A stretch of DNA of 64,000 nucleotides, from assembly GCF_029338355.1 (NCBI RefSeq), contig NZ_CP119803.1:62001-126000 (forward strand), read 5' to 3'. This document shows, piece after piece, positions 26,917 to 44,514 of this stretch (within the stretch, counting starts at the first letter, position 1; every line of letters begins with the position of its first letter). Position numbers and translations under genes: made by a program. The stretch is from Halosegnis marinus. Its GTDB lineage: Archaea; Halobacteriota; Halobacteria; Halobacteriales; Haloarculaceae. The notes beneath the pieces were generated by a model. The model had not been told where the DNA came from. It made no database searches and saw nothing but the letters and a program-made list of their open reading frames with translations.

Positions 26917-26919
26917 CGA

Positions 26920-27762
26920 TCAGTAGAACGCGATCGCTCGATCACCAACGGTTCCAAGCGAAAGCTCCGCCGGCGCAGCCTCGATCGATTCCCCGCCGGC
27001 AAAGGCGTAGTCAGCGTAGTCAGTGGTCCACCGCCCGGAAGCATCGGCGGCCATGGCCGCAGGCACACGCTCGACGTGTTGGGTTTGCCCGGGCTGCGGA
27101 ATTACAGCGTCCGTCGCATCCGGTATTGCGGAGGCAACCGACACACTGGTTCCATCACCAGCCACGGATCCCACACTCGTTTCGACAGCCTCCGGTGTCG
27201 TCACTGTGGCGAGGAGCTCCGACAAACCCATGCTGGGCGTATAATGGCTCGTCCCCGCGTCCAGGCGATTCGCAAGCGTCTCATAGACTGCCTGATCTTC
27301 GGTCGCGATAGAGAGCCGATAGGCGGGGTCGACGAGATACTCGTAGCTGTGGATCTGCCGGTTCGTCGTTGAATCCGGATACTCGACTTGCACCGTCTTC
27401 CGCCCCGTCCCCCCGGCTCGTTCGAACGTCTCGCTCGGATTCGTTCCAAGCCCGAGGCTCGGCATAGTCATGGTCCGAACGGGTTCGAGCACTTCAATCC
27501 CGATTGCCGACCGTTCGAGCGAGAATGCGTCGTAATACGAATCACGATCGAGACCCGCGATCGCAGCCAACAGTCCAGCGATTGTCGTACGCGGTGGAAT
27601 TCGATACGTTTGCTTTGTAACGGTCCGGTCGATCCGCCGGAAGTGCCCCCAGTCAGCTCGGATCGTACACTGTAAACACCGGTCAGGAACGCCGTCGCTG
27701 ATCACCGGTGCCTCCCAGTCACCGGTTCCGTGACCGGCCGTCGCACCGGACGACTCAGTCAT
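26920..27762 (-). CDS. cas5: Cascade subunit Cas5
   Basis: A 280-residue protein when started at ATG 27762, which overlaps the cas7 stop by 8 bp and so couples translation. The N-terminal RRM-like strand is CLQCTIRADWGHFRRID, followed by the Cas5 signature YRIPPRTTIAGLLAAIAGL, where the PPRTT segment leads into a conserved helix. A second typical part is the base-gripping region with REIHSYEYLVDPAYR-like sequence (QIHSYEYLVDPAYRLSI). By family it caps the 5' handle of the crRNA and holds Cas8b in the Cascade complex. Confidence 0.93.
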   Translation of the reverse strand: MTESSGATAGHGTGDWEAPVISDGVPDRCLQCTIRADWGHFRRIDRTVTKQTYRIPPRTTIAGLLAAIAGLDRDSYYDAFSLERSAIGIEVLEPVRTMTMPSLGLGTNPSETFERAGGTGRKTVQVEYPDSTTNRQIHSYEYLVDPAYRLSIATEDQAVYETLANRLDAGTSHYTPSMGLSELLATVTTPEAVETSVGSVAGDGTSVSVASAIPDATDAVIPQPGQTQHVERVPAAMAADASGRWTTDYADYAFAGGESIEAAPAELSLGTVGDRAIAFY

Positions 27763-28798
27763 CAGCCGGCAGTGTCTCCTCGTAGTCCGCGTACACGTCG
27801 ATCTCAGTTGCGGAGATCCCATGATCCTCGAGTATCGACGGGAGCTCCGCAGCCGTGCCGACCGGCTCGCCGTCGTAACTCAGCTCGAGGTACTCACTAC
27901 CGACGACATGGACTGTCTCGATGTGGTCCGCCGCATTGGCCAGCCGATCGATGAACGGCTTCACCTCAAGCGTGAGATCGGTCACGTTACGGAGCTCTGC
28001 ATCCGGCTTCGAATGGTCGCTCTCGAGCTCGAATCCGTTGTGCAGATCGCCAGCGTGGAACCCATCCTTAGCGTACTCGACACGCGCGTACAGGCGCGGC
28101 TCCTGGCCCACTTTGCTACGCGATATCGTCTGGTTCTTCAGCGCCCGCCAACAGAGCGTGTCGAGGCGACGAACATCCGCCTCGCTCAGCCCAGTGTCTT
28201 CCGCGCCGTGCTCGTCCACCAGCCCGTGGAACGGGAAGATCGCGTACTTCAGACGGTGGTCGTCGAGACCGTATCCACCGACGTCGTTGTCACCCCCGGT
28301 CGAAATCACGCTCGTGAGCATACTGGACTCATCGTTGAGCTCGGTGGCGTTCAGCGAGCGTGCCGGCGAGAATTGGACCGGGCCGGTGTAATTGCCACTG
28401 TTGAAATGCTCTGCGACAGCCGCTTCGAGACCCTCATCGTCAGCGTTGAAGCTCAACGTGGCCCCAAAGTACCGAACGTCAGTTGCTGCGGCCAGGAAAT
28501 CAGCCTCGACATCCACCTCCTCGAGATCCTCCTCCGAGGTAACGTCGTCGAGGACGTCAAGGGCGAGCTCCGCGCGGGTTGCGCTCGTGCCGTCGGTCTT
28601 CTTGACGAAGACACCGTGTCCATCGTCGATGAGCTGATCTCGCAGATAGCGCTTGAGCCGCACATCCGTGACGACGGCCTGGTCAGTGACTGGATCGCGA
28701 CGGGGGCGATTTTCCCCGAGGGGATTGCCGTTCGGGTTGCTGTCCTGTGCGTCGGTGATGAAGACGATCTCGGATCGGGTGTTGACAGTGTCGCTCAT
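27755..28798 (-). CDS. cas7: Cascade backbone subunit Cas7 (Csh2)
   Basis: A 347-residue protein starting MSDTVNTRSEIVFITDAQDS, followed by NPNGNPLGENRPRRDPVTDQ, the hallmark N-terminus of Csh2-type Cas7. A later RRLDTLCWRALKNQTISRSK and the Gly-rich GGDNDVGGYGLDDHRLKYAI also fit. By family, several copies wind along the crRNA spacer and form the backbone of the type I-B Cascade. It follows cas8b after 37 bp and overlaps cas5 by 8 bp. Confidence 0.96.
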   Translation of the reverse strand: MSDTVNTRSEIVFITDAQDSNPNGNPLGENRPRRDPVTDQAVVTDVRLKRYLRDQLIDDGHGVFVKKTDGTSATRAELALDVLDDVTSEEDLEEVDVEADFLAAATDVRYFGATLSFNADDEGLEAAVAEHFNSGNYTGPVQFSPARSLNATELNDESSMLTSVISTGGDNDVGGYGLDDHRLKYAIFPFHGLVDEHGAEDTGLSEADVRRLDTLCWRALKNQTISRSKVGQEPRLYARVEYAKDGFHAGDLHNGFELESDHSKPDAELRNVTDLTLEVKPFIDRLANAADHIETVHVVGSEYLELSYDGEPVGTAAELPSILEDHGISATEIDVYADYEETLPADD

Positions 28799-28835
28799 TG
28801 TGAATTAGTTGGTGTGGATGGTTGGACTCGGTTGG

Positions 28836-31046
28836 TTACGCATCGTCCGCCGGCTCGCTCGGGCGGTGTTCGTCTCGGAGCTCGTACGCCTGTGACTGGG
28901 CATCCGCCCCGTAGGCCGTGCCAACAGCGAAATGGAAGCGGATGTCCTCGACGGGAAGGGCCCAGTCACGCTCACTTGGCGGGTGATCACCAACCGCGTC
29001 GATCAGCCGCTCGATAGTTTCGGAGAACAGCTGTGTGCTCGACGATTTCATCTCGGTGGCATACGCGCTAGACTTCGAGATGAGCTCTGGGAAGAGCCGG
29101 CTCAATCGCGCGCCAGTCATGCGGTGGGCGGGGTGCATATCCCGGAGCGTCTGGTTCATGTCGCGATTCCGTCGCTGGTGGTGGGCAAGCTGCCCAAGCA
29201 GGACGCCAGCGAGGAAGACGCCTCGACGCTCCGGATTGTCAGCGAGCGCCGGGCGCTCGTCGATGAATCGTGCGAGTCGATATTCACGGAGCGAGGACAG
29301 CTTGAGCTCGCCGTCATCCGTGGGCTCCGGAAATGCGATGCTGGGTTGATCAGTCGGTGTGCCACCGTCCGCGAAAGCGGTCGGAGGCTCGGTCGTGTCG
29401 GTCGTGGAGTCGTGCATTCGTGGTGGTGTCGTGAGTTCCGTCTGTCCAGTTTGCGAGACAAGCAGTCCGGCCCGGGCAAGCGCCTCCAGCTGTGCGATCT
29501 GTACATAGAGGACGTACGTCCCGTACTGATCGTTGGCGAGGTCGGTTTCGTCCTCGAGCCGTGCAACGTACTCGCTGAGGAGTCGCTCAACAGGTATCTC
29601 TTGGCCAGTGAGGAGCGATTGCGTCAACCACTCGCGAGGATCGTCAGAAACAGGCGCTTCTTCGAACGGTCGCTCAAGCGTATCGCGGGCGTACGTACCG
29701 TCAACGACCGCACGGAGCATCGTGTTGGGGTGTCGGCCTGCTTGTCCGAGATGGCGGAACGACGAGTCCCCTCGGAGCCCTGCAAAGCCTGCCGTCGAAT
29801 CGAACGTGGTCGAGGTTTCCGTGTTAATCGTCGTTGTGTGTGCCTGTGCGACCCGTCGTGGCCAATATGCCGTGACCGACGGCTCCTCGAAGAGGACATT
29901 GATGTCGCCACTATCGTTGCGGACTCCGATGACGTAGAATCGGAGCCGCTCAACGGCATCGGGAAAGAGCTCCTCGCCCTGGTCATGATAGTCGCCGATC
30001 GAGGTCGCATCTCCCGTGATCAGCCTATGCAAATCGATTGCATCGTCAACCGAACAGTCGACGAAGTACGGGAGCGTGTAGACACGAATCCCGCCCCGCG
30101 TTCGGCTACACTCGTCGACGAAGGCGCCACCGGACTGGATCAGCAATGCCGCTTCCGCGGAGATCGAATGCGATCGCCACGCGTCGCTCTTCGAGAGGTG
30201 TGGGAACTTTTCCGCGTGTTGGACCGTGTAGAAGGCGAGCGGATCTTGGGCCGTGCCAAACACCTCTGCCTCTTTGCCAGTCACCATGCACGCACCCTGC
30301 CCACGGGACGGTGGGTCCGAATCCTCGAGGTTCTTACGCGAGAGTTTCTCAAGCTTGCGTGCTCGCATCCCCGCATTGAGAACGTGGAGCTGGCCAGGAT
30401 AGAATTCCCCGACACCACTGGCCCCCTCTGGGGCATGCTCAAGTTCGCCTGGGTCAATAGTAATCGCGACTGTTGCAGTTACTCGAGGCTCCGTAGCAGG
30501 GAATTCCTGTTCAACATGCTGTGTCAGCTGCTCCTCGATGTCATCTTTGCCTCCGAGGGCCGCCAGTTGGGTGATGACCCACCCGTCGGGATGCTCATCA
30601 GCGAGCTCGCCGATAGCTGGCTCTGCCCCCCCACCGTTGGTCCATCGGTAGAGGCGCTGCTTGAGGTAGCCCACCGTCTGCTCGCTATCAGAGCCACCTT
30701 TCGCACCTCGGTGCGTGATACTGTGGTCGATCCCGCGGCCCGGCGGATACCGTGCGTAGCCGAGCATGTCGACATCCGATGGCTGGAGCGGGCGGACCGA
30801 GACGTCGGTTAGCTCCGGACTCTCGCCCGTTAGATCGACATGGGCCGTCGCCAGGTAGCGCGTGTCCTCTCCCTGCGTAACATACCCGGAGAGATCACCA
30901 GGCGTATAGTACAACCCGAATTCACCATCGGCGTCACCGGCCTCCGCTTCAGCAAGCGCACCGTACAGCGCCTGGATCCGTCGCAGCGACGAGATCGGTC
31001 CGTCGGGAAGATACTGCTCGACGATGTCGGGATCTGGCTCCGCCAT
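28836..31046 (-). CDS. cas8b: Cascade large subunit Cas8b (Csh1)
   Basis: A 736-residue protein, second in the operon; its ATG shares one base with the cas6 stop. Typical halophile Cas8b features: an N-terminal DISSLRRIQALYGALAEA-like segment (PISSLRRIQALYGALAE), a single CMVTGKEAEVFGTAQDPL knuckle in the middle, the LAFYTVQHAEKFPHLSKSD segment, and a helical C-terminal part (SLREYRLARFIDERPAL) resembling the small-subunit fold that is fused in many I-B systems. By family it recognises the PAM and opens target DNA. Sequence varies strongly in this family, but order and size agree. Confidence 0.92.
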   Translation of the reverse strand: MAEPDPDIVEQYLPDGPISSLRRIQALYGALAEAEAGDADGEFGLYYTPGDLSGYVTQGEDTRYLATAHVDLTGESPELTDVSVRPLQPSDVDMLGYARYPPGRGIDHSITHRGAKGGSDSEQTVGYLKQRLYRWTNGGGAEPAIGELADEHPDGWVITQLAALGGKDDIEEQLTQHVEQEFPATEPRVTATVAITIDPGELEHAPEGASGVGEFYPGQLHVLNAGMRARKLEKLSRKNLEDSDPPSRGQGACMVTGKEAEVFGTAQDPLAFYTVQHAEKFPHLSKSDAWRSHSISAEAALLIQSGGAFVDECSRTRGGIRVYTLPYFVDCSVDDAIDLHRLITGDATSIGDYHDQGEELFPDAVERLRFYVIGVRNDSGDINVLFEEPSVTAYWPRRVAQAHTTTINTETSTTFDSTAGFAGLRGDSSFRHLGQAGRHPNTMLRAVVDGTYARDTLERPFEEAPVSDDPREWLTQSLLTGQEIPVERLLSEYVARLEDETDLANDQYGTYVLYVQIAQLEALARAGLLVSQTGQTELTTPPRMHDSTTDTTEPPTAFADGGTPTDQPSIAFPEPTDDGELKLSSLREYRLARFIDERPALADNPERRGVFLAGVLLGQLAHHQRRNRDMNQTLRDMHPAHRMTGARLSRLFPELISKSSAYATEMKSSSTQLFSETIERLIDAVGDHPPSERDWALPVEDIRFHFAVGTAYGADAQSQAYELRDEHRPSEPADDA

Positions 31047-31864
31047 CAGTCGTCACCCGCGACAGACGCTTGTCCCGACGCTGTCGCACGCTCCTTTGAG
31101 CCCTCCTGAATATTCAGGAAGCCAAGGCCGAGCGCGTTCCGCTCCCCGATCCCCGCATCGAGCGCGAGGTTCAGATGGCGGCGGTGGTGATCGTCGCGCA
31201 CACGATAGCCAAAGCGCCACTTCGAGAGCACATAGGTCAGCTCGACGCCCTGGGTCACCTCAACGGGGACGGCGAACGTCTTGATCAGCTCGTACTCATC
31301 AAAGAGCTCTCCCTCGCGATCACTGGGTCCTGGCAAGTGCTCCGGACAACAGTAGTCGTGCTTCTGGTCGAGGTTGTTCTCGAGCTGTGTCTTGAACGGC
31401 TCGAGCGTATGCTCGGGGCGCCAGTACAGCGCCTCGTCACCCTCATGCTCGATGCCGTAGTCGTCGGTGCGCCACGGAGGAATGCGGACCAAGACGCCCG
31501 TCCCGGATTCGATCGTGCCGCGAGTTCCGGGCTCGCCGACGTCCGGATGAAGCCCGGTGATTTCCTCGACGCTGAACGCCATCTCACCGACATTGAAATC
31601 GCGATTCTCGATGAGATCGCCGGCGATTGGCCCGAGGATGTCCGGATCAGCCGCCGACACCATCACGTGTCGGCGGTCACCTTCCTCGATGTCTCCCCAC
31701 GGGAAGATATTCGAGAACGTGAGCCCGATCGGGCGATCGGCGTCGTGGAGGTCGTCGTATTTGCTGCCGTCGATACCTTGCCACACACGGCCACGCAGTT
31801 TGTGATGCCAGGCGTTTTGATACGCGGCATCGGCCTCCGCGCGGAGCTTAATGAGCAATCGCAT
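31046..31864 (-). CDS. cas6: CRISPR RNA endonuclease Cas6b, first gene of the cas operon
   Basis: A 272-residue protein of the RAMP superfamily. The N-terminal ferredoxin-like strand is MRLLIKLRAEADAAYQ, followed by WHHKLRGRVWQG with two His that may include the catalytic one, and the C-terminal Gly-rich loop GIGERNALGLGFLNI is diagnostic for Cas6. By family it cuts the array transcript within the repeat, leaving the 8-nt 5' handle. The operon cas6-cas8b-cas7-cas5-cas3 is read from here on the minus strand; 230 bp without genes lie upstream. Confidence 0.94.
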   Translation of the reverse strand: MRLLIKLRAEADAAYQNAWHHKLRGRVWQGIDGSKYDDLHDADRPIGLTFSNIFPWGDIEEGDRRHVMVSAADPDILGPIAGDLIENRDFNVGEMAFSVEEITGLHPDVGEPGTRGTIESGTGVLVRIPPWRTDDYGIEHEGDEALYWRPEHTLEPFKTQLENNLDQKHDYCCPEHLPGPSDREGELFDEYELIKTFAVPVEVTQGVELTYVLSKWRFGYRVRDDHHRRHLNLALDAGIGERNALGLGFLNIQEGSKERATASGQASVAGDD

Positions 31865-32756: not shown

Positions 32757-34043
32757 ATGGCGACCGGTGAAAAGCTGACCGACCGCTTCCGGGAGCTACG
32801 CTCCTCTCTCGACGCCTTGCCGGAGGTGACGGAACCGCCGAAACCGATGCTTCGCATTCTTGGCTCGGCGAGAGCCGAGCAGAAGTGGAACACACTACTG
32901 GCCTACTTTCTCGATCCAGCCCAACCTCACGGCTTCGGTTCGGACTTGCTGAAGGCGTTTCTGGACAAAGCGAACCAAGTCACGGGCGAACCGATCGAGT
33001 ACTACCACCGAGATCTCGATCTGATAAAAGTCGAGACAGAGGCCACCTCCCCCCAAGACAATCGTCTCGATATTCTCATTCGTGCCGGCGATGAGTGGTT
33101 TGTCTGTATCGAATCGAAGGTTGAGTCCACTGAGGGAGCCCGCCAAACAGAGCGATATGTCGAAGACTCACATATCGGAAGCACGGAGAAAGACGCGTAT
33201 CCCAACGACGGTCGATACTACCTGTTCCTCTCGAAAGAACACGCCCCTGACTCATCGGCTGGTGAATTCGAGGATATCAGTTGGCGAGACACCGTTACGG
33301 CGTTCCAGAGCGAGCTAAACCGCTCACACGGCCGGTATCCGGAGCGGAGCGTGAGCCAGCTCGAAGATTTCCTCTCCACGATAATTACGGTGACAAACAT
33401 GGAAGACGACGACTTCGAACAAATTCAGAAAGAAAAGGTCCAGCTCCTCAGCGAGTACAAAAGCGACATCGATGAGCTGTATGAGGCCGCAGAGGCGCTC
33501 CGGAAACGAGCAATAGAGGAGTGGCCGGAGTTACTCCGTGCTCACATTGCCGAGGACGTCTGGACCGAGGAGTGGCACACGCGTGATGACTACGGAAAAT
33601 ACGGATGCATCTTTCGCGATGGGTGGTACCGGGCCACCGATGATCTCGCCCCAACCCTCGACCACAACGACACTCGAGGTGGGCGGGGCATCCGCCTGCA
33701 CTTCGTCCATCTCATTCGCAAGCAACAATCGTTCGCTGACGGCGAGTTAACCTACGTACTGCGGTGTCCGGGGAGTGGTGACGTCCGAGATGAATTCAAT
33801 CGGCTCTACAACAGCCGCAAGTGGCAGGACAAGCTCGAGCCGCTCCTCGCCGATCGAGGGATTTCCAACAAAGGCAATCAGAGAGATTACACGAAAAAGA
33901 CCTATGACGTAGACCAGTCCCAGCTTCCCGAGAGCTATTTTGAGACACTCGCAGTCGCGTTTGAAGAACACCTTCCGGTTGCGATGGTGATCGATGAGAT
34001 ACTCGAGGAAGCGATCCAGAATAATAAGCAAAATCCCCTATAA
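32757..34043 (+). CDS. PD-(D/E)XK nuclease family protein
   Basis: A 428-residue protein. The core sits in the N-terminal third: ILGSARAEQKWNTLLAYFLD (a common opening of this group), DNRLDILIRAGDEWFVCIES with Asp 105 and Glu 119-Ser-Lys 121, then a helix (RQTERYVEDS) that closes the nuclease fold. The rest is helical and carries EEWPELLRAHIAED and a late alpha/beta part. Relatives occur as stand-alone putative restriction or defence nucleases. A TATA-like GATATTTTATC lies about 32711-32721. No methylase partner is adjacent. Confidence 0.75.
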   Translation: MATGEKLTDRFRELRSSLDALPEVTEPPKPMLRILGSARAEQKWNTLLAYFLDPAQPHGFGSDLLKAFLDKANQVTGEPIEYYHRDLDLIKVETEATSPQDNRLDILIRAGDEWFVCIESKVESTEGARQTERYVEDSHIGSTEKDAYPNDGRYYLFLSKEHAPDSSAGEFEDISWRDTVTAFQSELNRSHGRYPERSVSQLEDFLSTIITVTNMEDDDFEQIQKEKVQLLSEYKSDIDELYEAAEALRKRAIEEWPELLRAHIAEDVWTEEWHTRDDYGKYGCIFRDGWYRATDDLAPTLDHNDTRGGRGIRLHFVHLIRKQQSFADGELTYVLRCPGSGDVRDEFNRLYNSRKWQDKLEPLLADRGISNKGNQRDYTKKTYDVDQSQLPESYFETLAVAFEEHLPVAMVIDEILEEAIQNNKQNPL

Positions 34044-35608: not shown

Positions 35609-35971
35609 ATGAAACCCTCACTTAGCGATCTCGCTGAACGGTATAATGCATTCGTCGAAGCACGCGATTGGAACAGGTTCCACACTCCACAAAACCTCGC
35701 GATGGCCATCTCCGTCGAAGCCAACGAGCTGTTAGAAACGTTCCTCTGGTTCGATAATCCAGACAGCGCCACCGTAGCTAGCGATGACGAGACGATGCGG
35801 GCCGTCGAAGAGGAGCTGGCCGACGTGATTATCTACGCGCTTGGCCTGGCCAACGAGCTGGATATCGATATACTAGCCGCCGTCGAGGCAAAGCTCGACG
35901 AGAATGACGAACGATTTGATCCAGAAACGAGTGAAGCGATAACCGCGGAACTAGACAAGTGGCAACGCTAG
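35609..35971 (+). CDS. MazG-like nucleotide pyrophosphohydrolase
   Basis: A 120-residue all-helical protein with the full MazG metal motif: Glu 37 and Glu 40 in ISVEANELLETFLWFD and Glu 69 and Asp 72 in EEELADVIIYALGLANEL. By family it hydrolyses (d)NTPs to monophosphates, cleansing the nucleotide pool or, in phages and stress, reducing nucleotides or (p)ppGpp. It converges with the EVE-nuclease gene; their ends overlap by 4 bp. An AT-rich TTTTTTACTC just before the ATG may serve as promoter or leader. Confidence 0.88.
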   Translation: MKPSLSDLAERYNAFVEARDWNRFHTPQNLAMAISVEANELLETFLWFDNPDSATVASDDETMRAVEEELADVIIYALGLANELDIDILAAVEAKLDENDERFDPETSEAITAELDKWQR

Positions 35972-37077
35972 CTATCGGTGATCGCGGAGAGCGTGCGCAT
36001 TGAGGACTCCAACCCGGCTACCCCACCATCGTCGACCCAAAACGTGTGGATGTCACGGTCCGTGAGCGACTGAAGCACGGGACGGTATGGCTCGGATGGC
36101 GGTCGGCTCAAGAGGAGACAGACAAGCCGCTCCTTTCCAGCCAGCTCCACATTGGTCGCGATGTCGGTGTGCGCATACTCGAGGACTTGCCCGATTCCCC
36201 GCCGAATTTGAGATCGTTCGTTCTGTCCGTGTATTGATTTTGCTTCCGCTAACACGACTGCACCATCGTCGAAGGAAATGAGATCGCTATTCGTTGTCTC
36301 TCCCCCACTCAATCCACGCTCGGCGAGGTACGTCTCAAAGATGTCGAGAGCCTCCTCGTGATCGATTGTCCCAGCAATCGTGTCACCGAGAGAGGGGGTG
36401 TATTCGACCGCCTCGTCCGAGAAAGCATTCGGATCGAGATTCCGGTCCTGGGCTCGTTCACGGATCTCAGCCGATCCGTTAATCGACGCCGTCCGCTCGC
36501 TACTTTCAGTTGCAGAGCTGGCGGCCTCGGTTTCCGGTGACGCGTCCAACCGTGATCGGATCAACGGGAACAGTTTCTCGGGCTGTGAGACATTCATCGG
36601 CGATCCCTGTGCCGGGATCTGATAGCCAGCTTCGGAGCGCATCTCCGGGAACGAGATGATATTCGCTGCCAGATGATGCACATCGGCAATCATCTCCTCC
36701 GTGTCTTTCTCAGCAACCGGCACATCGCGGATTTCATCCGTTTGCCCAAACCAAACGATGTCTTCGAGGTCGATGAGGTACGGGTATGTTCCGTCGCCAT
36801 GGATCTCCTGCCACCATGCAGCCTCCTCCTTCGTCCGTTTATTCGCCACCCGACCGAAGCCGATAATCCCGGTTCCGACTTCCTCTAGTAGTGATGGTGG
36901 GACGTCAAGGAATTCGGATTTCGATGCATGAAACAGAAACGCTTGCCCGGGCCTGATCGCCTCCCAGGCAGCCTGTTTGTCGGGGCGGAACCCCCAGTAT
37001 CCAGTATGGAAGGTCGTCACCCAATGCTCGATTGGGCCTGTTACCTTTTGGAAATCAAGCCGATGGGTAGCGCTCAT
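35968..37077 (-). CDS. EVE-domain/PD-(D/E)XK nuclease fusion
   Basis: A 369-residue protein from the ATG at 37077; a longer form from 37149 would start 15 bp after the xseB stop and cannot be excluded. The N-terminal EVE (PUA-like) domain shows HWVTTFHTGYWGFRPDKQ and GQAFLFHASKSEF, then GTGIIGFGRV and YLIDLEDIVWF; such domains flip out and read modified bases. A polar linker follows (about 170-230), then a nuclease core with SDLISFDDGAVVLAEAKS: Asp 265, Glu 278 and Lys 280 in the short form. This reader-plus-cutter build suggests restriction of DNA with modified bases. Third gene of the exonuclease VII operon. Confidence 0.82.
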   Translation of the reverse strand: MSATHRLDFQKVTGPIEHWVTTFHTGYWGFRPDKQAAWEAIRPGQAFLFHASKSEFLDVPPSLLEEVGTGIIGFGRVANKRTKEEAAWWQEIHGDGTYPYLIDLEDIVWFGQTDEIRDVPVAEKDTEEMIADVHHLAANIISFPEMRSEAGYQIPAQGSPMNVSQPEKLFPLIRSRLDASPETEAASSATESSERTASINGSAEIRERAQDRNLDPNAFSDEAVEYTPSLGDTIAGTIDHEEALDIFETYLAERGLSGGETTNSDLISFDDGAVVLAEAKSIHGQNERSQIRRGIGQVLEYAHTDIATNVELAGKERLVCLLLSRPPSEPYRPVLQSLTDRDIHTFWVDDGGVAGLESSMRTLSAITDS

Positions 37078-37164
37078 AGCGGCATCACTCACACCCAGGA
37101 TATAATCGTCCGGTCGCAACGGCTTCCCTACAAGACGCCCTTGGCCCATCAGGTATCGGCGCAG

Positions 37165-37350
37165 TCAGTCGTGGCGTGTGATCTCCCCATCGCCAACCGC
37201 GAGGTCAGATTCTAACTCTTCAAGCAGCTGCATCGCTTCGTCACGCAGCGCCTTTGCATCGGCCGGGTTCATCGTGTCGGCTTGCTGCAGCTCGTTCCGT
37301 ATCTCTTCGACGCGATCGATCTTCTGCCGAATATCGTCATTCTGTGTCAT
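37165..37350 (-). CDS. xseB: Exonuclease VII small subunit
   Basis: A 61-residue helical protein (MTQNDDIRQKIDRVEEIRNE, then NPADAKALRDEAMQLLEELE), the size and two-helix pattern of exonuclease VII small subunits: a first helix, a short turn with a polar residue, and a second helix used for binding the coiled coil of the large subunit. It starts 21 bp after the large-subunit gene in the same direction. On its own the sequence would be too short to assign; position beside xseA makes the case. Confidence 0.75.
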   Translation of the reverse strand: MTQNDDIRQKIDRVEEIRNELQQADTMNPADAKALRDEAMQLLEELESDLAVGDGEITRHD

Positions 37351-37371
37351 TGTCTGATGGTGCTCGCTCGA

Positions 37372-38820
37372 TTACAGCAATCCTCCAAGGGTCGCGAGGA
37401 GGACGAGGACGGTTATGATGAGCGCGGTGATGATCCCGTAGAGGATTAGCCGAGTCCGGCGGTTTCCTGTCCGCTCGGTGGCCAGAGTATGCTCTTGATC
37501 AATCGTCCTCACGGCTTGGTTGATGTCGGCCCGGGTTCGCTCGATCCAGTCGGTTCGGAGTCCGGTATAGGCCGATTCGATATCTCGTTCCCATACACGA
37601 AGGTTTCCGGCTAGCGACCGTTCGAAGCCAGACTTGATCGCCAACCTCTCGGTTTCGATCCAGTGGGTGATGTGTTGTGCCGCCGTCCGATCGATCTCGG
37701 CTTCGGTTTCGTCTAGCCAGTCGCTCGTTAACCGATCGCTCTCGGACTCGATCATCGTCGCCCGCCCGCGTTGCCACTTGCGCCACTGTGCCCGATACCC
37801 TTCAGCGATCGACTGGTCGATCTCCAGCCACTGTGATGCCAACCGTCTCGTTTCGCGGTTGATTGCGTCTGCTTCGCGTTCGAGCCACCGCCGTTGTTGG
37901 GAGCTGAATGCCTCCTCGATTGCTGCAGTCGCATTTTGGACAGCCTCCTCTAGCTCAGCCTGCTCCTCCACAACAGCCGCCCCTGCAGCAGTGGGCGTCT
38001 TTGCGCGATGATCTGACACTTGCTCGATGAGTGGTTCATCTGCGTCGTGTCCGATTGCAGCGACGGTTGGCGTCGAGCAATCGGCTGCCGCTCGCACGAC
38101 GGGCTCAGCATTGAATGGTCGCAGCGCCGTTTCACTGCCACCACCGCGCGAGATGATCAGCGCCTCCGCGTCAGATGCATCGGCTGCCTCGATCGCATCG
38201 ACGAGCTCGGACGATGCCGATTTTCCCTGGACAGTGCTCCCGAAGACATCAATGTTGACTGTAGGGTAGCGAGTGTGGATACTCTCGATGAGATCCTGCT
38301 CTGCGTCACTTCCGGGCGCAGTCACGATCGCGACACGAGCTGGAAACTGAGGAATGGCTGCTTTCCGCTCGGGCGCAAAGAGCCCCTCCTCTGCCAGTGT
38401 CTCCTCAAGAGCTGCGAGGCGTTTCCAGTATGCATTCTCGCCGACTGCGTGCGCCTCGCCGACCTCCAGGCTTGGATAGCCACCACCCTCAAAGTAATTC
38501 AGCCTGCCACGGACTGCGACGATCATCTCCGGTTCTAGCTCCACACCAATATCGTCGCGGCGACTTTGCCACACCACGCATTTGATCTTCTTGTTAGCGT
38601 GGGCGGCCGCGAGCGAGAAGTAGAGGTGATCAGCATCCCCTGAGAGATCAGTCACCGCACCAACGAGAAGGGATTCGTCATATTTGTCGAAGCCTTTGAA
38701 CAAGCCTCGCAGGGTCCCTGTGACTGTCTCGACGGGGACGAGCTCGTTGAGGCCCACGCCGTCTGGAAGCTCAGGCTCATCGACTTCATCAAGCGTGGAA
38801 TCGCCCGCCATGAAGGCCAT
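37372..38820 (-). CDS. xseA: Exonuclease VII large subunit with C-terminal membrane helix
   Basis: A 482-residue protein. An N-terminal OB fold (about 28-125: LVGAVTDLSGDADHLYFSLA, KIKCVVWQSRRDDIG) binds single-stranded DNA. The catalytic domain shows ARVAIVTAPGSDAEQDLIES, ALIISRGGGSETALRPFNAE and TVAAIGHDADEPLIEQVSDH with AKTPTAAGA, all hallmarks of XseA. A long helical region follows, rich in Trp and Arg (300-445). Unlike typical XseA, the chain ends in a hydrophobic helix, about residues 456-480 (LILYGIITALIITVLVLLAT), so the enzyme may be anchored at the membrane. By family, with the small subunit, it degrades single-stranded DNA to oligonucleotides from both ends. Confidence 0.88.
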   Translation of the reverse strand: MAFMAGDSTLDEVDEPELPDGVGLNELVPVETVTGTLRGLFKGFDKYDESLLVGAVTDLSGDADHLYFSLAAAHANKKIKCVVWQSRRDDIGVELEPEMIVAVRGRLNYFEGGGYPSLEVGEAHAVGENAYWKRLAALEETLAEEGLFAPERKAAIPQFPARVAIVTAPGSDAEQDLIESIHTRYPTVNIDVFGSTVQGKSASSELVDAIEAADASDAEALIISRGGGSETALRPFNAEPVVRAAADCSTPTVAAIGHDADEPLIEQVSDHRAKTPTAAGAAVVEEQAELEEAVQNATAAIEEAFSSQQRRWLEREADAINRETRRLASQWLEIDQSIAEGYRAQWRKWQRGRATMIESESDRLTSDWLDETEAEIDRTAAQHITHWIETERLAIKSGFERSLAGNLRVWERDIESAYTGLRTDWIERTRADINQAVRTIDQEHTLATERTGNRRTRLILYGIITALIITVLVLLATLGGLL

Positions 38821-39031
38821 CCGTACTCATTGTGCTAGTAGGTTGCAATTAAGCCGTTCGGTTGGACCAAGCTGATATAATCCGTTTTGGCGGGGCCCAT
38901 TGGGCATCACGAGCGAGCGCGCCGCGTATAATCATCCGGTCGAGCCCTTCTACGCCCCTCGGCCGTCGGGGGCGAATATAATCACCCGTTGTCGGCGGTA
39001 GGTTGAATAGTCCCATCGGAGTGGGTGGGCT

Positions 39032-41605
39032 GTGCCACTTCGGGAGGCGACGTCGATCGACGGGCTGGGGGAGCTGACGCAGGATGCCGATCTCACATTG
39101 ACGGCCGATCCGCCGCTTGCCCTCGCGCTCGACCGGCGGGTCAAGCGACCACAGTTGGGGCGTGTCGGGGCGACGCCCCGCGGATACGCCGTGAACGAGT
39201 TCACACCGATGGACCGGCGGAAACTGTTCGAGCAGCTCGTCACCGAGACGGAGCTGACATGGAAACAGGCCCACCGGGCGCTCGACCGGACGCTCAGTTG
39301 TTGGGATCAAACCGGGACACTCGACTCGATCCGCACACACGACGAGTTCGACACGCCAGCGATCCGGACGGCCGTCGAGACACTTCGCGACGGCGACTCG
39401 AGCTACCACGCGCTCACCGAACGGTCCCTCCCAGCCGACCAGGACGTCGCAGTGATCAACGAAGCCGCCCTCTCGTCGCTGGATCGTCGCCTGCTCCCCG
39501 ACGAGTACGACACTGTTGAGCCGTTCACGGGAGACACGACGTCGGTTCCCGAGTTTCACGTCTTTCCGTCGGCGACGGCGATCGTCGACGCGCTGCTCGC
39601 GCAGCTCGATGCCCACTCGGCGGAGTCGGTCGGGATCGTGCTCGACGAGTCAACGGTCTTCAGCCCACTCGTCGAGTCCGCACTCGAGACGGCGGAGATT
39701 CCGTACCAGGGCGGTCCGGGCTTCGTCGATGACGACAGCGTCCGGACGTTTCTACGGCTGTGTGACGCGGTCTTCGCCGGGAGCGACCTCCGGGTCGCCG
39801 ACCTTCGGCCACTATTGGCCCGCGTCGGCGTCACGATCGAGCGCCGCGCCGATCAGCGGCGTGTCGATCGAGTCGACGGACTTGATGTGTTCGACGACTT
39901 CCGAACAGCGCTCACCGATGGGACGCTTCGGGACGCGATCGGTGTGTACGAACGCCTCGCCGGCACCGAGCTCGGTCCGCTCCGCGAGGAGTGTGCGTCG
40001 CTCGGCCTTCTGGACGAGGCGTTCACCAGCGCCCACCTCGACCGACTCCAATACTATCTCGCGAGTTTCGACGTGCCCGTCGACCGTGAGAGCGAGGGAG
40101 TTCTGCTCACGGATGGCGCCTCGACGGCGTATATCGACCGACCGGTCGTGTTCTACCTCGGGCTTGGCGACGGCTGGGCGAAAACCCCGCCGGATGTCCC
40201 GTGGATCGACTCCGTCGAATACATCCAACGCGATCTCGATCGGTTTGAGATCCTCTTACAGAACGGCCACGAGCAACACTTTCTAGTGCAGGATACCCGT
40301 GCCGGCGCCGAGGTGACACCGTGTGTGTACTTCCGCGAGCTGTTTGAGCGTCCCTTCGACCGGTTCACCGAGCTGCCACACACCGATCACGGTGACGGCG
40401 TCACTCGAGATCGAATCGAGACACCGTTCGTTGCCCCGTCTAGTGATGAGACGGCGAATTCACCGGCGACGGTAAGCCAGTCAACGCTGTCGCGGCTGGC
40501 AAACTGTCCCCGCGAGGAGTTCTTCCACCGGCTCGTCGACTCACCGACGACGATTCCGATGGCCCGCGGGACGGTCGTCCACGAGGCCGCCGAACTGTAC
40601 GTCGCCCACCCAGACGCAATCCGGGCACGATTCGAAGACGTCGTCGACGCGATGCTCGCGCAGCTCCAGGCGTACACGGCCACGGCCCGCGAGCCCGTCG
40701 AACGGACCCAGCTGGCCCTCGCTCTGGAGACAGTCATGGCATATCTGGATGCAAACCCTCCCGTCGAGACGACGCACGAAGCGTATAGCGACCGGACACA
40801 GTCGAACGAGCTCGGGGACCGGCTCGGGCTTGCGGCCGAGTCGCCGCTCACGGAGCGCTGGTTCGACGCGCCAGAGATCGGCCTCCACGGGTTCGTCGAT
40901 TTACTGCAGTCCGCAACCACGATGGTTGACTACAAGACCGGCTCACAGTCGCGGGCAAGCAGGCTCCGCAAGCAGGCGTCACTATCCCCACTGGACGAGT
41001 CGCCGAACTTCCAAGCGGCAGCGTATCTCAGCCAGCAACGCCGCGACCGACCGGGCGAGCCGCTTGAAATTCGGTTTGTCCACGTTCTGGAATACGCCGA
41101 CCAGCTGGCCCGTGGAGACGACATCTCAGTTGACGAGCTGGTAACGACTGTCGAGTATCTGCCGTGTACGTTCGGGGAGTTCGCTGCTCGGCGTGAGACG
41201 TTTGAGGCGGTGACCGATTACGCTGATTCGAACGACCGCGTGAAAGCGCTGGAACCGCTCGGGTACGAGGCGTATCGGGCATTCTTCGAGGACCACGACC
41301 TCCCCAGGGCAGGCGTCGCTCCCGATCGTCGAGAGGCCATTATCGAGACGTTCATCGACTACACAAAGGAGCTGTTCAAGGACACGAAATACGTAGAACA
41401 GGGCTGTCGCGCCGCAGTCGAGGACATCGACGGATTGGTCGGTGAGCGGTATCTCGCCTCGGACCTCGATGCGTTCGAGGAGTTCGTTGCCACACAACGA
41501 GAACGGCTTGGGCGGTATCGTGAGGAGGGATTCCCGGTTCGCGTTCGGGATGAGGGCCCCAACTGGGACCGCGTCGACACTCGAGATCTGGTGATCGACG
41601 AATGA
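39032..41605 (+). CDS. RecB/AddB-like nuclease subunit
   Basis: An 857-residue protein starting with GTG. The N-terminal part resembles an inactivated UvrD-like scaffold as in AddB (LTADPPLALALDRRVKRPQL, FHVFPSATAIVDALLAQL, DDSVRTFLRLCDAVF). The C-terminal nuclease has LHGFVDLLQ with Asp 623 and MVDYKTGSQS with Asp 633 and Lys 635, then a helix FQAAAYLSQQR. Bacterial AddB carries four iron-sulphur Cys; here only CPREEFF and a lone C-terminal Cys are seen, so no cluster is likely. The stop overlaps the next start (ATGA). By family the two proteins process double-strand DNA ends. It is divergent from xseA, 211 bp away. Confidence 0.82.
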   Translation: MPLREATSIDGLGELTQDADLTLTADPPLALALDRRVKRPQLGRVGATPRGYAVNEFTPMDRRKLFEQLVTETELTWKQAHRALDRTLSCWDQTGTLDSIRTHDEFDTPAIRTAVETLRDGDSSYHALTERSLPADQDVAVINEAALSSLDRRLLPDEYDTVEPFTGDTTSVPEFHVFPSATAIVDALLAQLDAHSAESVGIVLDESTVFSPLVESALETAEIPYQGGPGFVDDDSVRTFLRLCDAVFAGSDLRVADLRPLLARVGVTIERRADQRRVDRVDGLDVFDDFRTALTDGTLRDAIGVYERLAGTELGPLREECASLGLLDEAFTSAHLDRLQYYLASFDVPVDRESEGVLLTDGASTAYIDRPVVFYLGLGDGWAKTPPDVPWIDSVEYIQRDLDRFEILLQNGHEQHFLVQDTRAGAEVTPCVYFRELFERPFDRFTELPHTDHGDGVTRDRIETPFVAPSSDETANSPATVSQSTLSRLANCPREEFFHRLVDSPTTIPMARGTVVHEAAELYVAHPDAIRARFEDVVDAMLAQLQAYTATAREPVERTQLALALETVMAYLDANPPVETTHEAYSDRTQSNELGDRLGLAAESPLTERWFDAPEIGLHGFVDLLQSATTMVDYKTGSQSRASRLRKQASLSPLDESPNFQAAAYLSQQRRDRPGEPLEIRFVHVLEYADQLARGDDISVDELVTTVEYLPCTFGEFAARRETFEAVTDYADSNDRVKALEPLGYEAYRAFFEDHDLPRAGVAPDRREAIIETFIDYTKELFKDTKYVEQGCRAAVEDIDGLVGERYLASDLDAFEEFVATQRERLGRYREEGFPVRVRDEGPNWDRVDTRDLVIDE

Positions 41606-44514
41606 GCGACCCGACGCCGAACGACAACCAGCAGCAACTGATCGGCTCCACTGATGGTATTTATCGGGTTGATGCGGGTGCCGGTACGGGGAAGACGTTC
41701 GCTGTTACCCGGCGCTACGCTCGGATTCTGGAGACGACCGACGCGGCGCCTGAAGACATCCTCCTCGTCACGTTCACCCGGAACGCCGCGGCGGAGATGC
41801 GCGACCGCATCGTCCAACAAACCGACTACGATCTCCGGCAGCTCCAGGACGCGCCGATCAGTACGTTCCACGCCTACTGTTTCCGGTTGTTGCGGCGGCA
41901 CGGCCACACGGCCCCTACGGCACTCGGGATCGACGACCAGATCCCTGATTCGCTGGATCTGATCGAGGAGCAGGCCCGTGCAAAGCAACTGTTCCGCCGG
42001 TTCATGTCCCGGTTCGCCGACGACCATCCGGAACATGCCGACCTCCTTCGGGTGTTCTACGACCGGGGGACACTCCACGCGCTGATCGGAGAGCTGGCTG
42101 CAAAGGGCGTTGTGCCGACACGCAACGGCTGGTATCGAGCGACGGGTGAGCCGTTGACCGGTGATCGCGAGCGGTTCTTCGACGCGTTCACAGCCGCCAA
42201 CCAACCGAACGAGGGTGCGAACGGCCCCACGAACAGCGACGCCCGCGGGGCGGTCGGTGGCTGGGACGCCGGCGAGTACGCGCCCGACGCCCCGACACGC
42301 GGCGAGCTCCACGACGATCCGCGGATTTCGCGGTCGGTCGTCGAAGATGCGTACGACGCTGATCGAGACGCGCTGCTCGCATTCATCCACGACGTCTACA
42401 TCGAGTACCTCGCGTTCGCGCTGTCACAGAACTACCTGACACAAGGGCTGATGCTGGCCCTCGCGTTCGTCATGCTGTGTGAATCGCCCGGTGTCCGCGC
42501 GCGGATCGGCCACGAGTACGTCATGGTCGATGAGTTCCAGGACACGAACGAACTCCAATTCAAGATCGCGCTGTTGCTCGCTCGGACGAACAATATCTGT
42601 GTCGTCGGCGATTGGAAACAGTCTATCTACGGGTTCCAACACACGAGCGTTGCGAACATCACTGACTTCGGCGAGCGACTTCAACGATTCACCAGCGAGT
42701 TGAACGCCGACTGTCGCCGAATCGACTACGCTGTCGACGACGTCCAGACAATCCCACTGTTCGAGAATTACCGTTCGTCGGCGTCGATACTCTCCTTTGC
42801 CGAGCAGAGCCTCTCCATCCCGGCGACGTCCAGCGAAGACGTCGGGGATCCGTTAGCCGGGACACGCTCACTCGAGGCGACTAACGCCGTTGACAACGCA
42901 CAGATCGACGCATACCGCGCGGACGGCGAGTACGACCTCGTCTTAGATCGGATTCAGCATATCGTCAAGAACGAGTCGTATGCCGTCGAAACGAGCAACG
43001 AGCCCCAGGCCGACGAGGACGCTTCGGACGAGGATCGCATCGCGGCCGAACACGAACGGCTCGGGCCGCCCAGCTACGACGATATCGCGGTTTTCACGCG
43101 GACACGGGCGTTCGCCCGCGGGCTTCTGGAACGTGCCGAGGAATACGGCATCCCGCTCGCCTACGAGGGCGGTGTGGAACTGTTCGACACGCCGGAAGCG
43201 AAGCTGGCGCTCGCCTGGTTGCGCATCGCCGAGTCGGATGGCCGACGCGGCTGGGCGGTCGCACTGGAGCGAGCCGGGTACGGCTTCGAGCGCACACAGA
43301 CGATCCTTGACGAGGAATCGTATCCGGACGCTATGCTCCAGTTCCGCGACGAGCTCACCGAGCTGGAGACGCTTGGCGGGTTCCTACGGCGGGTCTTCGA
43401 TCGGTACGGGCGGACGAGTGTGTATGCCGACGCCCTCGTCGATCATCTCACGGGATTGTACGATGGGACGTTACTCACGCGTGGGGAGACGATCAGCTAT
43501 ATCGAGGAGAACTTGGCCGCCGAGACGACCGTCGAGATCGACGCGAACCCCGGCAGCGACGCGGTGACGCTGCAGACGATTCACGGAGCGAAAGGACTCG
43601 AGTATCCGATCGTCATTCTCGGGAATTTGAACGAGCGATCATTCCCACATTACGGCCAGCCCCCGTCGTGTCCGATCGTCTACGACGACGCGACTGGGCT
43701 TCGACAAACCCGCATGTACAGTGAGGCCGGGGCCTATCCACATGTGTACCGCAACTGGCGACATCGGCTCTTGCAAGCTTGTCTGCCGTCGGACTACGAC
43801 GAGGAGCGGCGGTTGCTGTACGTGGCGATGACACGTGCCAAGCGCCACCTCTTGTTCACGGCCGGCGAGGAGCCGAGCCGGTTCATGGACGGGCTCTCGA
43901 TCGAGGCCGAGGAGATAGATCCGGATCCCACGCCGGAGTCACATTCCCCGATCGACCACGAGCCGTTCACTGTCGACGTACCCACAAGTCGAGACATTCC
44001 GACACGGCTCGGTGTCCATGACATCATGGACGACTCCGTCTATGACAACCGAACCGGGGGCCGCGGGACTGCTTTCGGAACGGAGCTCCACGATTTCGCG
44101 GAGGCATACGCGCTCGGCGAGTCCGTTGAACCAGCGAATAACGATCAACGCGCCGTCGCTCAGCTTATCAGCGGACTTGCTGGTGAGTTTCGCGTCGAGG
44201 AGACGGCGCTGTTGCCACTCCCCGGAGAGCCAGCGGTGACACTGTCTGGAATCATCGATCTGGTCCATGTGACCGATACACAGATCGACGTAATTGATTA
44301 CAAGACTGACCCGGACCGCGTTGCCCACGAGGAGTACCGAAAGCAACTGAGTGCCTACTATCATGTCCTCGCGAGCGTCTATCCGGATCGTGAGATCCGA
44401 CTGCAGGTGTTTTACACCCAGACGGCGGAGTCCGTCGAAGTCACCCCTCTCTCGACCGACCGGCTTCGAGAGCTCGCAATCGCAGCGATGGCTGGTAGTT
44501 CGGGCGAATCCTAA
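41602..44514 (+). CDS. UvrD/AddA-like helicase with C-terminal nuclease domain
   Basis: A 970-residue SF1A helicase. Motif I is AGAGTGKT at 25-32; motif II VMVDEFQDTNELQ; motif III region GDWKQSIYGFQ; motif IV region ENYRSSASIL; motif V TIHGAKGLEYPIVIL; motif VI LYVAMTRAKRHLL. The C-terminus adds a RecB-type nuclease: SGIIDLVHV with Asp 886 and VIDYKTDPD with Asp 899 and Lys 901, then RKQLSAYYHVLA. With the preceding gene it forms an AddAB/RecBCD-like helicase-nuclease pair which in related systems resects broken or foreign DNA ends. Both partners keep nuclease motifs, as in AddAB. Confidence 0.88.
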   Translation: MSDPTPNDNQQQLIGSTDGIYRVDAGAGTGKTFAVTRRYARILETTDAAPEDILLVTFTRNAAAEMRDRIVQQTDYDLRQLQDAPISTFHAYCFRLLRRHGHTAPTALGIDDQIPDSLDLIEEQARAKQLFRRFMSRFADDHPEHADLLRVFYDRGTLHALIGELAAKGVVPTRNGWYRATGEPLTGDRERFFDAFTAANQPNEGANGPTNSDARGAVGGWDAGEYAPDAPTRGELHDDPRISRSVVEDAYDADRDALLAFIHDVYIEYLAFALSQNYLTQGLMLALAFVMLCESPGVRARIGHEYVMVDEFQDTNELQFKIALLLARTNNICVVGDWKQSIYGFQHTSVANITDFGERLQRFTSELNADCRRIDYAVDDVQTIPLFENYRSSASILSFAEQSLSIPATSSEDVGDPLAGTRSLEATNAVDNAQIDAYRADGEYDLVLDRIQHIVKNESYAVETSNEPQADEDASDEDRIAAEHERLGPPSYDDIAVFTRTRAFARGLLERAEEYGIPLAYEGGVELFDTPEAKLALAWLRIAESDGRRGWAVALERAGYGFERTQTILDEESYPDAMLQFRDELTELETLGGFLRRVFDRYGRTSVYADALVDHLTGLYDGTLLTRGETISYIEENLAAETTVEIDANPGSDAVTLQTIHGAKGLEYPIVILGNLNERSFPHYGQPPSCPIVYDDATGLRQTRMYSEAGAYPHVYRNWRHRLLQACLPSDYDEERRLLYVAMTRAKRHLLFTAGEEPSRFMDGLSIEAEEIDPDPTPESHSPIDHEPFTVDVPTSRDIPTRLGVHDIMDDSVYDNRTGGRGTAFGTELHDFAEAYALGESVEPANNDQRAVAQLISGLAGEFRVEETALLPLPGEPAVTLSGIIDLVHVTDTQIDVIDYKTDPDRVAHEEYRKQLSAYYHVLASVYPDREIRLQVFYTQTAESVEVTPLSTDRLRELAIAAMAGSSGES

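What the first reader, a model, noticed from the sequence alone, without database searches (positions are those of the whole stretch)
37077..38820. Exonuclease VII operon that ends in an EVE-domain nuclease
xseA, xseB and an EVE/PD-(D/E)XK fusion stand in one minus-strand run (gaps 21 bp and 15-87 bp). The EVE domain is known to read modified bases, the C-terminal core would cut, and exonuclease VII would degrade the single strands. I know of no described system that joins these three; as a unit it could detect, cut and clear modified phage DNA. The MazG-like gene overlaps its end tail to tail.
Basis: partly seen in the sequence, partly recalled or inferred. Interest (0 to 1): 0.72.

Follow-up and report, generated by a model that had tools for sequence, protein, structure and literature searches.

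The report
Modified-DNA cutter paired with dCTPase
The gene behind exonuclease VII in this haloarchaeon looks like an enzyme that cuts chemically modified DNA, but its recurring partner is not exonuclease VII: it is the tail-to-tail gene on its other side, which resembles an enzyme that destroys (modified) dCTP, and the same pairing recurs in other archaea and in bacteria.

Summary
The genes exist as described: xseA (37372-38820), an xseB-like gene (37165-37350) and a reader-nuclease gene (35968-37149, likely start 37077), all on the minus strand. The proposed three-gene unit is not supported. Relatives of the third gene never stand beside xseAB (0 of 6), and none of the 29 other xseA loci checked has it. 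It also has its own TATA-like element 27 bp upstream of its likely start. The nuclease reading holds: the model's N-terminal half matches EVE/YTH folds and its C-terminal half PD-(D/E)XK nucleases; relatives of the nuclease half also stand behind SRA readers. The recurrent partner is the MazG-like gene (35609-35971), whose stop overlaps in CTAG. Its best PDB match is human dCTP pyrophosphatase 1 (E=2e-17). The pair recurs in 4 of 7 family members. The same MazG-like family (7% of haloarchaeal genomes) also stands next to EVE-HNH nucleases in four haloarchaea, and next to EVE-NOV_C, EVE-HNH or DUF3578-HNH proteins in Pseudomonas, Streptomyces, Nocardiopsis and Priestia. I propose a type IV restriction module: the nuclease cuts modified DNA and the dCTPase removes modified dCTP, protecting self and/or starving the virus. 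Function is inferred, not shown. No paper found in the library describes this pairing.

The parts
35609..35971 (+). MazG-like / DCTPP1-like all-alpha NTP pyrophosphohydrolase (120 aa); proposed partner
   Evidence: PF12643 44.7 bits vs cut-off 27; human DCTPP1 / mouse RS21-C6 in the PDB at E=2.4e-17, ungapped over residues 2-108; metal motif E37xxE40...E69xxD72 invariant in A2; next to the gene-3 family in 4 of 7 genomes
35968..37149 (-). reader-nuclease gene (393 aa from 37149; likely true start ATG 37077, 369 aa)
   Evidence: homologues begin near residue 25-33
36607..37050 (-). N-terminal EVE/YTH-like (PUA-superfamily) reader domain, residues ~34-181
   Evidence: Foldseek top hits PH1033 (1wmm, 2hd9), MJECL36 (2p5d), then YTH domains; the same region is found in McrB-like AAA_5 proteins; profile-profile match to the EVE-HNH family A5, E=5e-6
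35977..36390 (-). C-terminal PD-(D/E)XK nuclease core, residues ~254-391, motif D289-x12-E302-A-K304...Q321
   Evidence: motif residues invariant in 7 relatives; Foldseek hits XisH (2okf, 2inb), Nt.BspD6I, Hjc, PaqCI; relatives behind SRA domains in L068-L070, L072
35968..35971 (.). CTAG shared by the two convergent stop codons
   Evidence: 0-4 bp convergent abutment also in L063, L064, L066, L137, L139
37099..37107 (-). GATTATATC, TATA-box-like, centred ~27 bp upstream of ATG 37077
   Evidence: the same 9-mer upstream of xseA at 38874-38882; 3 in the window vs 0.25 expected
37165..37350 (-). xseB-like small subunit (61 aa); neighbour, judged not part of the module
   Evidence: relatives adjacent to xseA in most xseA loci
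37372..38820 (-). xseA, ExoVII large subunit (482 aa) with a C-terminal membrane segment (~residues 457-475); neighbour, judged not part of the module
   Evidence: TIGR00237 250 bits, PF02601 1.4e-50; PDB 8txr E=3.7e-26; hydrophobic C-terminus

Best explanation
Gene 35968-37149 encodes a single-chain modification-dependent (type IV) restriction endonuclease: an EVE/YTH-like domain binds a modified base in incoming DNA and a C-terminal PD-(D/E)XK domain cuts. Its functional partner is not exonuclease VII but the convergent DCTPP1-like gene 35609-35971, which I infer hydrolyses dCTP and/or 5-modified dCTP. The pyrophosphatase would keep modified cytosine out of the host's own DNA, so the nuclease does not cut self. 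During infection by a virus with substituted cytosine it would also destroy the virus's modified dCTP. Shown here: gene structure, fold-level domain assignment, conserved catalytic motifs, and recurrent gene pairing across archaea and bacteria. Inferred: modified-base specificity (cytosine rather than adenine), pyrophosphatase substrate, and the two-layer mechanism.
For: Fold: AF2 model (pLDDT 73; N domain mostly 80-91, C domain 74-93) matches EVE-family PH1033/MJECL36 and YTH domains at the N-terminus, and XisH, Nt.BspD6I, Hjc and PaqCI at the C-terminus. Pairing: a MazG-like gene abuts the gene-3 family tail to tail in the window, G016 (Haloarcula argentinensis), G319 and G194 (Halorubrum lipolyticum). 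MazG-like genes occur in only 20 of 292 haloarchaeal genomes, and started from MazG the neighbour is an EVE-like-HNH protein in four more genomes (G087, G143, G142, G067). Bacteria: five Pseudomonas loci carry MazG 10-15 bp upstream of the same reader fused to NOV_C; Streptomyces NBC_01724 and Nocardiopsis flavescens have MazG plus EVE-like-HNH (7 bp gap; 4 bp overlap); Priestia has MazG overlapping DUF3578-HNH by 4 bp. The HNH partners match VcaM4I, TagI and EcoKMcrA, all modification-dependent enzymes. MazG partner: DCTPP1 family; DCTPP1 prefers dCTP and 5-methyl-dCTP (PMC4491611).
Against: Three of seven gene-3 family genomes (G244, G112, G070) have no MazG-like gene at all, so it is not obligatory. 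Most EVE-HNH relatives lack it too: 157 of 282 genomes have a match but only ~7% carry MazG-like. About half of the MazG-like genes pair instead with an SLFN-g3/DUF2075 helicase, and some have no such neighbour. Pfam EVE does not match gene 3. YTH-like readers can bind m6A, so the base could be adenine. No activity is shown for any of these proteins.
Confidence: 0.57

Rival explanations
1. One reading: xseA-xseB-gene 3 is an operon in which ExoVII clears the single strands left by the EVE-nuclease.
For: Same strand with 21 and 15-87 bp gaps in the window.
Against: Unique arrangement: 0 of 6 relatives and 0 of 29 other xseA loci; on separate contigs in G016 and G319; own TATA-like element; different gene after xseB in each locus.
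Confidence: 0.05
2. Gene 3 is a solo modification-dependent restriction enzyme; the MazG-like gene is a general house-cleaning or mobile-element gene that settles in the same islands.
For: MazG absent from 3 of 7 family genomes; MazG-like also pairs with SLFN-g3 helicases and occurs alone; EVE-PD(D/E)XK enzymes are described as solo (PMC7641849).
Against: Immediate abutment (0-4 bp convergent, or 7-15 bp or 4-bp overlap co-directional) with several unrelated reader-nuclease families in archaea and bacteria, well beyond island co-residence.
Confidence: 0.27
3. The pair is a nucleotide-depletion (abortive) system: the nuclease senses modified viral DNA and the MazG-like enzyme depletes dCTP to stop replication, independent of modified dCTP.
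For: DCTPP1 hydrolyses dCTP itself (PMC4491611); MazG was predicted as a defence domain without validation (PMC13092281).
Against: No sensor, regulatory domain or fusion that would switch a 120-aa stand-alone dCTPase on; the conserved partner already has its own nuclease.
Confidence: 0.1

Closest known systems
EVE-PD(D/E)XK and EVE-HNH modification-dependent endonucleases (Bell, Wolf and Koonin 2020, PMC7641849; VcaM4I, PMC7897488)
   Same: Single-chain fusion of an EVE-superfamily reader and a nuclease; fast-evolving, hard to detect by sequence; EVE-PD(D/E)XK listed as a known architecture
   Different: Gene 3 is below Pfam EVE detection; modified-base dependence untested; no MazG-like partner is mentioned in either paper
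SRA-PD(D/E)XK enzymes (MspJI-type) and archaeal HHPV4I
   Same: PUA-superfamily reader plus nuclease; related nuclease halves occur behind SRA domains in haloarchaea
   Different: Reader is EVE/YTH-like, not SRA; per the PMC10101028 abstract HHPV4I is m6A-dependent and has an SRA and a winged-helix domain
DCTPP1 / RS21-C6 dCTP pyrophosphatase
   Same: Closest solved relatives of the MazG-like gene; metal motif conserved
   Different: Housekeeping pool sanitiser in mammals, not encoded next to a restriction enzyme
SauUSI-MutT neighbourhoods (legend of Fig. 9, PMC7641849)
   Same: A nucleotide pyrophosphohydrolase gene next to a modification-dependent restriction enzyme
   Different: NUDIX fold rather than all-alpha MazG; the function of the pairing is not discussed there
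Exonuclease VII (XseA-XseB)
   Same: The window's xseA and xseB-like genes
   Different: A separate neighbouring unit

Membership tests
EVE-PD(D/E)XK modification-dependent endonuclease | EVE/PUA-superfamily reader domain | tested here: inconclusive
   Fold level yes (PH1033, MJECL36, YTH) and profile match to the EVE-HNH family; Pfam PF01878 does not match any of 7 members
EVE-PD(D/E)XK modification-dependent endonuclease | PD-(D/E)XK catalytic core | tested here: met
   Invariant D289, E302, K304, Q321; structural matches to XisH, Nt.BspD6I, Hjc, PaqCI
EVE-PD(D/E)XK modification-dependent endonuclease | Cleavage depends on a modified base | not testable with these tools
   needs biochemistry
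DCTPP1-like all-alpha dCTP pyrophosphatase | MazG-like domain with EXXE...EXXD metal site | tested here: met
   PF12643 above cut-off; E37xxE40 and E69xxD72 invariant
DCTPP1-like all-alpha dCTP pyrophosphatase | Closest to dCTPase rather than dUTPase or HisE among solved structures | tested here: met
   DCTPP1/RS21-C6 E=2.4e-17; dUTPase only 0.002
DCTPP1-like all-alpha dCTP pyrophosphatase | Hydrolysis of dCTP / 5-modified dCTP | not testable with these tools
   needs an enzyme assay
   0 of 6 relatives, 0 of 29 other xseA loci
Exonuclease VII | XseA catalytic/OB domains and adjacent XseB | tested here: met
   TIGR00237, PF02601, PF13742; XseB-like gene adjacent here and in most relatives
McrBC | AAA GTPase translocase (McrB) | tested here: not met

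The most novel reading that the evidence does not exclude
A modular two-gene immune system spread across archaea and bacteria: one constant DCTPP1-like pyrophosphatase paired with interchangeable modified-base-reader nucleases (EVE-PD(D/E)XK, EVE-HNH, EVE-NOV_C, DUF3578-HNH). The pyrophosphatase acts on the modified nucleotide and the nuclease on the modified DNA, so the same chemical mark is attacked at the precursor and the polymer level.
Probability: 0.35. Interest if true: 0.78.

Novelty: new variant of a known kind. Interest (0 to 1): 0.6.

Why it matters
Type IV enzymes cut DNA that carries modified bases, yet cells can make and salvage 5-methyl-dCTP; how a host avoids cutting itself is seldom asked. 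A conserved dCTPase next to such enzymes offers a simple, testable answer. It would also predict a second layer of defence against viruses that build genomes from modified dCTP. Haloarchaea are a natural test case: halobacterial phage PhiN has a fully cytosine-methylated genome (Vogelsang-Wenke and Oesterhelt 1988, cited in PMC4284463). It would also give a role to stand-alone MazG-like genes, which were predicted but not validated as defence genes (PMC13092281).

Tried and rejected
Three-gene ExoVII unit: rejected on neighbourhoods. Sequence-only identification of gene 3 by Pfam, NCBIfam, PADLOC and PDB sequence: nothing. Carriage by viruses: no relatives of gene 3 or of the Pseudomonas protein in IMG/VR contigs; plasmids hold only partial matches to gene 3; integrase-like ORFs near several copies were noted by eye only. 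The AF2 model of the Pseudomonas relative failed (pLDDT 32) and was not used. Searching Gammaproteobacteria with the window family gave one intact locus, the seed, in 369 genomes, so the Pseudomonas branch is rare; genus Pseudomonas gave 2 of 249. A sigma-70 promoter scan was uninformative for an archaeon. Housekeeping MazG hits (Listeria, Enterococcus, Polaromonas, Paenibacillus) served as negatives.
Full report
WHAT WAS CLAIMED AND WHAT IS THERE. The finding names xseA, xseB and an EVE-nuclease as one minus-strand operon. The ORFs are real: xseA 38820-37372, a 61-aa ORF 37350-37165, a 393-aa ORF 37149-35968. The gaps (21 bp; 15 or 87 bp) and the 4-bp tail-to-tail overlap with a plus-strand MazG-like ORF (35609-35971) are as stated. 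xseA is secure (TIGR00237 250 bits against a cut-off of 180; PF02601 1.4e-50; PDB 8txr). The 61-aa ORF has no significant Pfam hit, but relatives of it follow xseA in most other haloarchaeal xseA loci, so xseB is right. The third ORF has no hit in Pfam, NCBIfam, PADLOC or the PDB sequences, alone or as a seven-member family. Relatives begin near residue 25-33, so ATG 37077 is the likelier start. The stated range 37077-38820 therefore excludes the nuclease gene itself.

THE THREE-GENE UNIT FAILS. In 391 haloarchaeal genomes gene 3 has six relatives over most of its length and xseA occurs in 106. None of the six has xseAB within the ~8 kb read on either side. In two of the three genomes with both genes they are on different contigs (G016 C23 vs C6; G319 C1 vs C2). 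Of 30 xseA loci examined, 20 of them with longer flanks, only the window has gene 3. The gene following xseB differs from locus to locus and often lies on the other strand. A TATA-like GATTATATC is centred about 27 bp upstream of ATG 37077; the same 9-mer lies upstream of xseA (three in the window, 0.25 expected by chance). That is a reasonable place for a haloarchaeal promoter of a leaderless gene (general knowledge), though no transcript was measured.

WHAT GENE 3 IS. The AF2 model built from nine relatives has mean pLDDT 73, with confident N- and C-terminal domains and a disordered linker around 204-255. Foldseek puts PH1033 and MJECL36 first, then YTH domains for the N-terminal part, and XisH proteins, Nt.BspD6I, Hjc resolvases and PaqCI for the C-terminal part. 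Labelling PH1033 and MJECL36 as EVE-family proteins is my own knowledge. The PD-(D/E)XK signature D289...E302-A-K304 with Q321 is invariant in seven relatives. Domain sharing agrees: residues 34-181 recur in many 750-1300-aa ORFs, and those scanned in Pfam (L013, L015, L022, and G229's shorter protein) carry an AAA_5 (McrB-like) domain. The C-terminal part recurs behind SRA domains (L068-L070, L072) and, in G223, directly after an ORF with the EVE domain type of the EVE-HNH family. A nuclease with interchangeable base readers is what a modification-dependent restriction enzyme looks like. EVE-PD(D/E)XK fusions were listed by Bell, Wolf and Koonin (PMC7641849). The modified base is open: EVE-HNH VcaM4I reads 5mC/5hmC (PMC7897488), but the YTH-like domain of an archaeal McrB reads m6A (PMC7641849).

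THE PARTNER IS THE MazG-LIKE GENE. The convergent gene belongs to the DCTPP1/RS21-C6 branch: its best PDB matches are human and mouse dCTP pyrophosphatase 1 (E=2.4e-17), aligned without gaps, while dUTPases only reach 0.002. The metal-binding E37xxE40/E69xxD72 pattern is invariant. It abuts gene 3 tail to tail in the window (shared CTAG), in Haloarcula argentinensis (G016), in G319 and in Halorubrum lipolyticum (G194), with 0-4 bp between or overlapping. G244, Haloferax gibbonsii (G112) and G070 have gene 3 but no MazG-like gene.

TURNING THE TEST ROUND. A profile of this MazG-like gene finds it in only 20 of 292 haloarchaeal genomes (22 places). Besides the three gene-3 loci in that sample, four have an EVE-like-HNH protein immediately next to it: G087 (convergent, 4-bp overlap), G143, G142, and G067 (convergent; the MazG ORF is a remnant). 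G129 has a stand-alone EVE protein (PF01878 E=0.0014, below cut-off) on the other side. Most of the rest pair with an SLFN-g3/DUF2075 helicase, a second recurrent context. Rough estimate: EVE-HNH-type matches run at about one to one and a half per genome, so chance adjacency is of the order of 0.1% per MazG gene; four in 19 independent cases is far beyond that (about 1e-8 to 1e-9, my own arithmetic, treating lineages as independent).

BACTERIA SHOW THE SAME. The same reader domain occurs in Pseudomonas fused to a different C-terminal domain (NOV_C, PF13020), and in all five loci seen (P. peli, PB120, A-RE-19, NKUCC02_KPG, G874) the MazG-like gene is 10-15 bp upstream on the same strand. On plasmids, a Streptomyces and a Nocardiopsis have MazG followed by an EVE-like-HNH gene (7 bp gap; 4 bp overlap), a second Nocardiopsis has the two ~0.5 kb apart, and Priestia aryabhattai has a DUF3578-HNH gene overlapping MazG by 4 bp and followed by DUF2075. 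So the constant element is the DCTPP1-like gene; reader and nuclease vary.

MECHANISM. DCTPP1 prefers dCTP and 5-methyl-dCTP and lowers cellular 5-methyl-dCTP (PMC4491611); polymerases can use 5-methyl- and 5-hydroxymethyl-dCTP as readily as dCTP (Q5 polymerase; PMC10742078). A cell that carries an enzyme cutting modified-cytosine DNA would gain from removing modified dCTP, and a virus that builds its genome from modified dCTP would lose its precursor. Both follow from the same activity and are not separated here. A parallel exists: MutT-type pyrophosphohydrolase genes beside SauUSI homologues (PMC7641849 legend). [quoted passage not shown] Steps shown: genes, folds, motifs, pairing. Steps inferred: base specificity, substrate, purpose.

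NOVELTY. The pairing with a DCTPP1-like dCTPase was not found in the library: no paper holds both 'type IV restriction' and 'MazG', Bell et al. do not mention MazG, and DefensePredictor lists MazG only as an unvalidated predicted defence domain. Subscription literature was not searched. I class it as a new variant of a known kind.

LIMITS. Adjacency is not function; MazG-like genes are not obligatory; the model is moderate; reader assignment rests on fold and profile evidence, not on a Pfam hit; loci with G handles carry no species names; the promoter is a motif only; domain calls for several unannotated bacterial ORFs were read from sequence.

Noticed in passing
window 37372-38820 and L073-L092: All 13 haloarchaeal XseA proteins checked, including the window's, end in a strongly hydrophobic ~20-residue segment (19-residue hydropathy 2.8-3.7), suggesting membrane-anchored exonuclease VII; most xseA copies lie on small contigs.
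   Followed up: partly
L068, L069, L070, L072: Haloarchaeal SRA-type reader proteins that carry a relative of gene 3's PD-(D/E)XK domain.
   Followed up: partly
L140-L143, L135, L145, L161, L162: A second recurrent pair: MazG-like gene directly before or after an SLFN-g3 (DUF2075) helicase in haloarchaea and bacteria.
   Followed up: partly
window 12573-16591: McrB-like AAA_5 protein plus an unnamed second gene (McrC-like by position); a homologous pair in L067 carries a gene-3-type reader on the AAA protein.
   Followed up: partly
window 24064-31864: Type I-B CRISPR-Cas interference genes (Cas6b, Cas8b, Cas7b, Cas3b); no adaptation genes noticed nearby.
   Followed up: no
window 39032-44514: Divergent from xseA: a PDDEXK_1 protein (857 aa) and a UvrD-like helicase-nuclease (970 aa), an AddAB-like pair.
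   Followed up: no
window 32757-34043: PDDEXK_4 protein matching the PADLOC candidate family PDC-S26.
   Followed up: no
L096 9968-12709: A Bipolaricaulota MAG has the same EVE-like reader fused to a DUF805 membrane segment and PKD repeats, with no nuclease seen.
   Followed up: no
G000:C2 44503-44994 and 159847-160338: Two HNH-family matches with identical scores ~115 kb apart on the window's contig, possibly a duplicated or over-assembled circular replicon.
   Followed up: no
L131 5051-6799: In G239 the MazG-like gene abuts tail to tail a 582-aa protein of no Pfam family, with an AAA_5 (McrB-like) gene on its other side.
   Followed up: no
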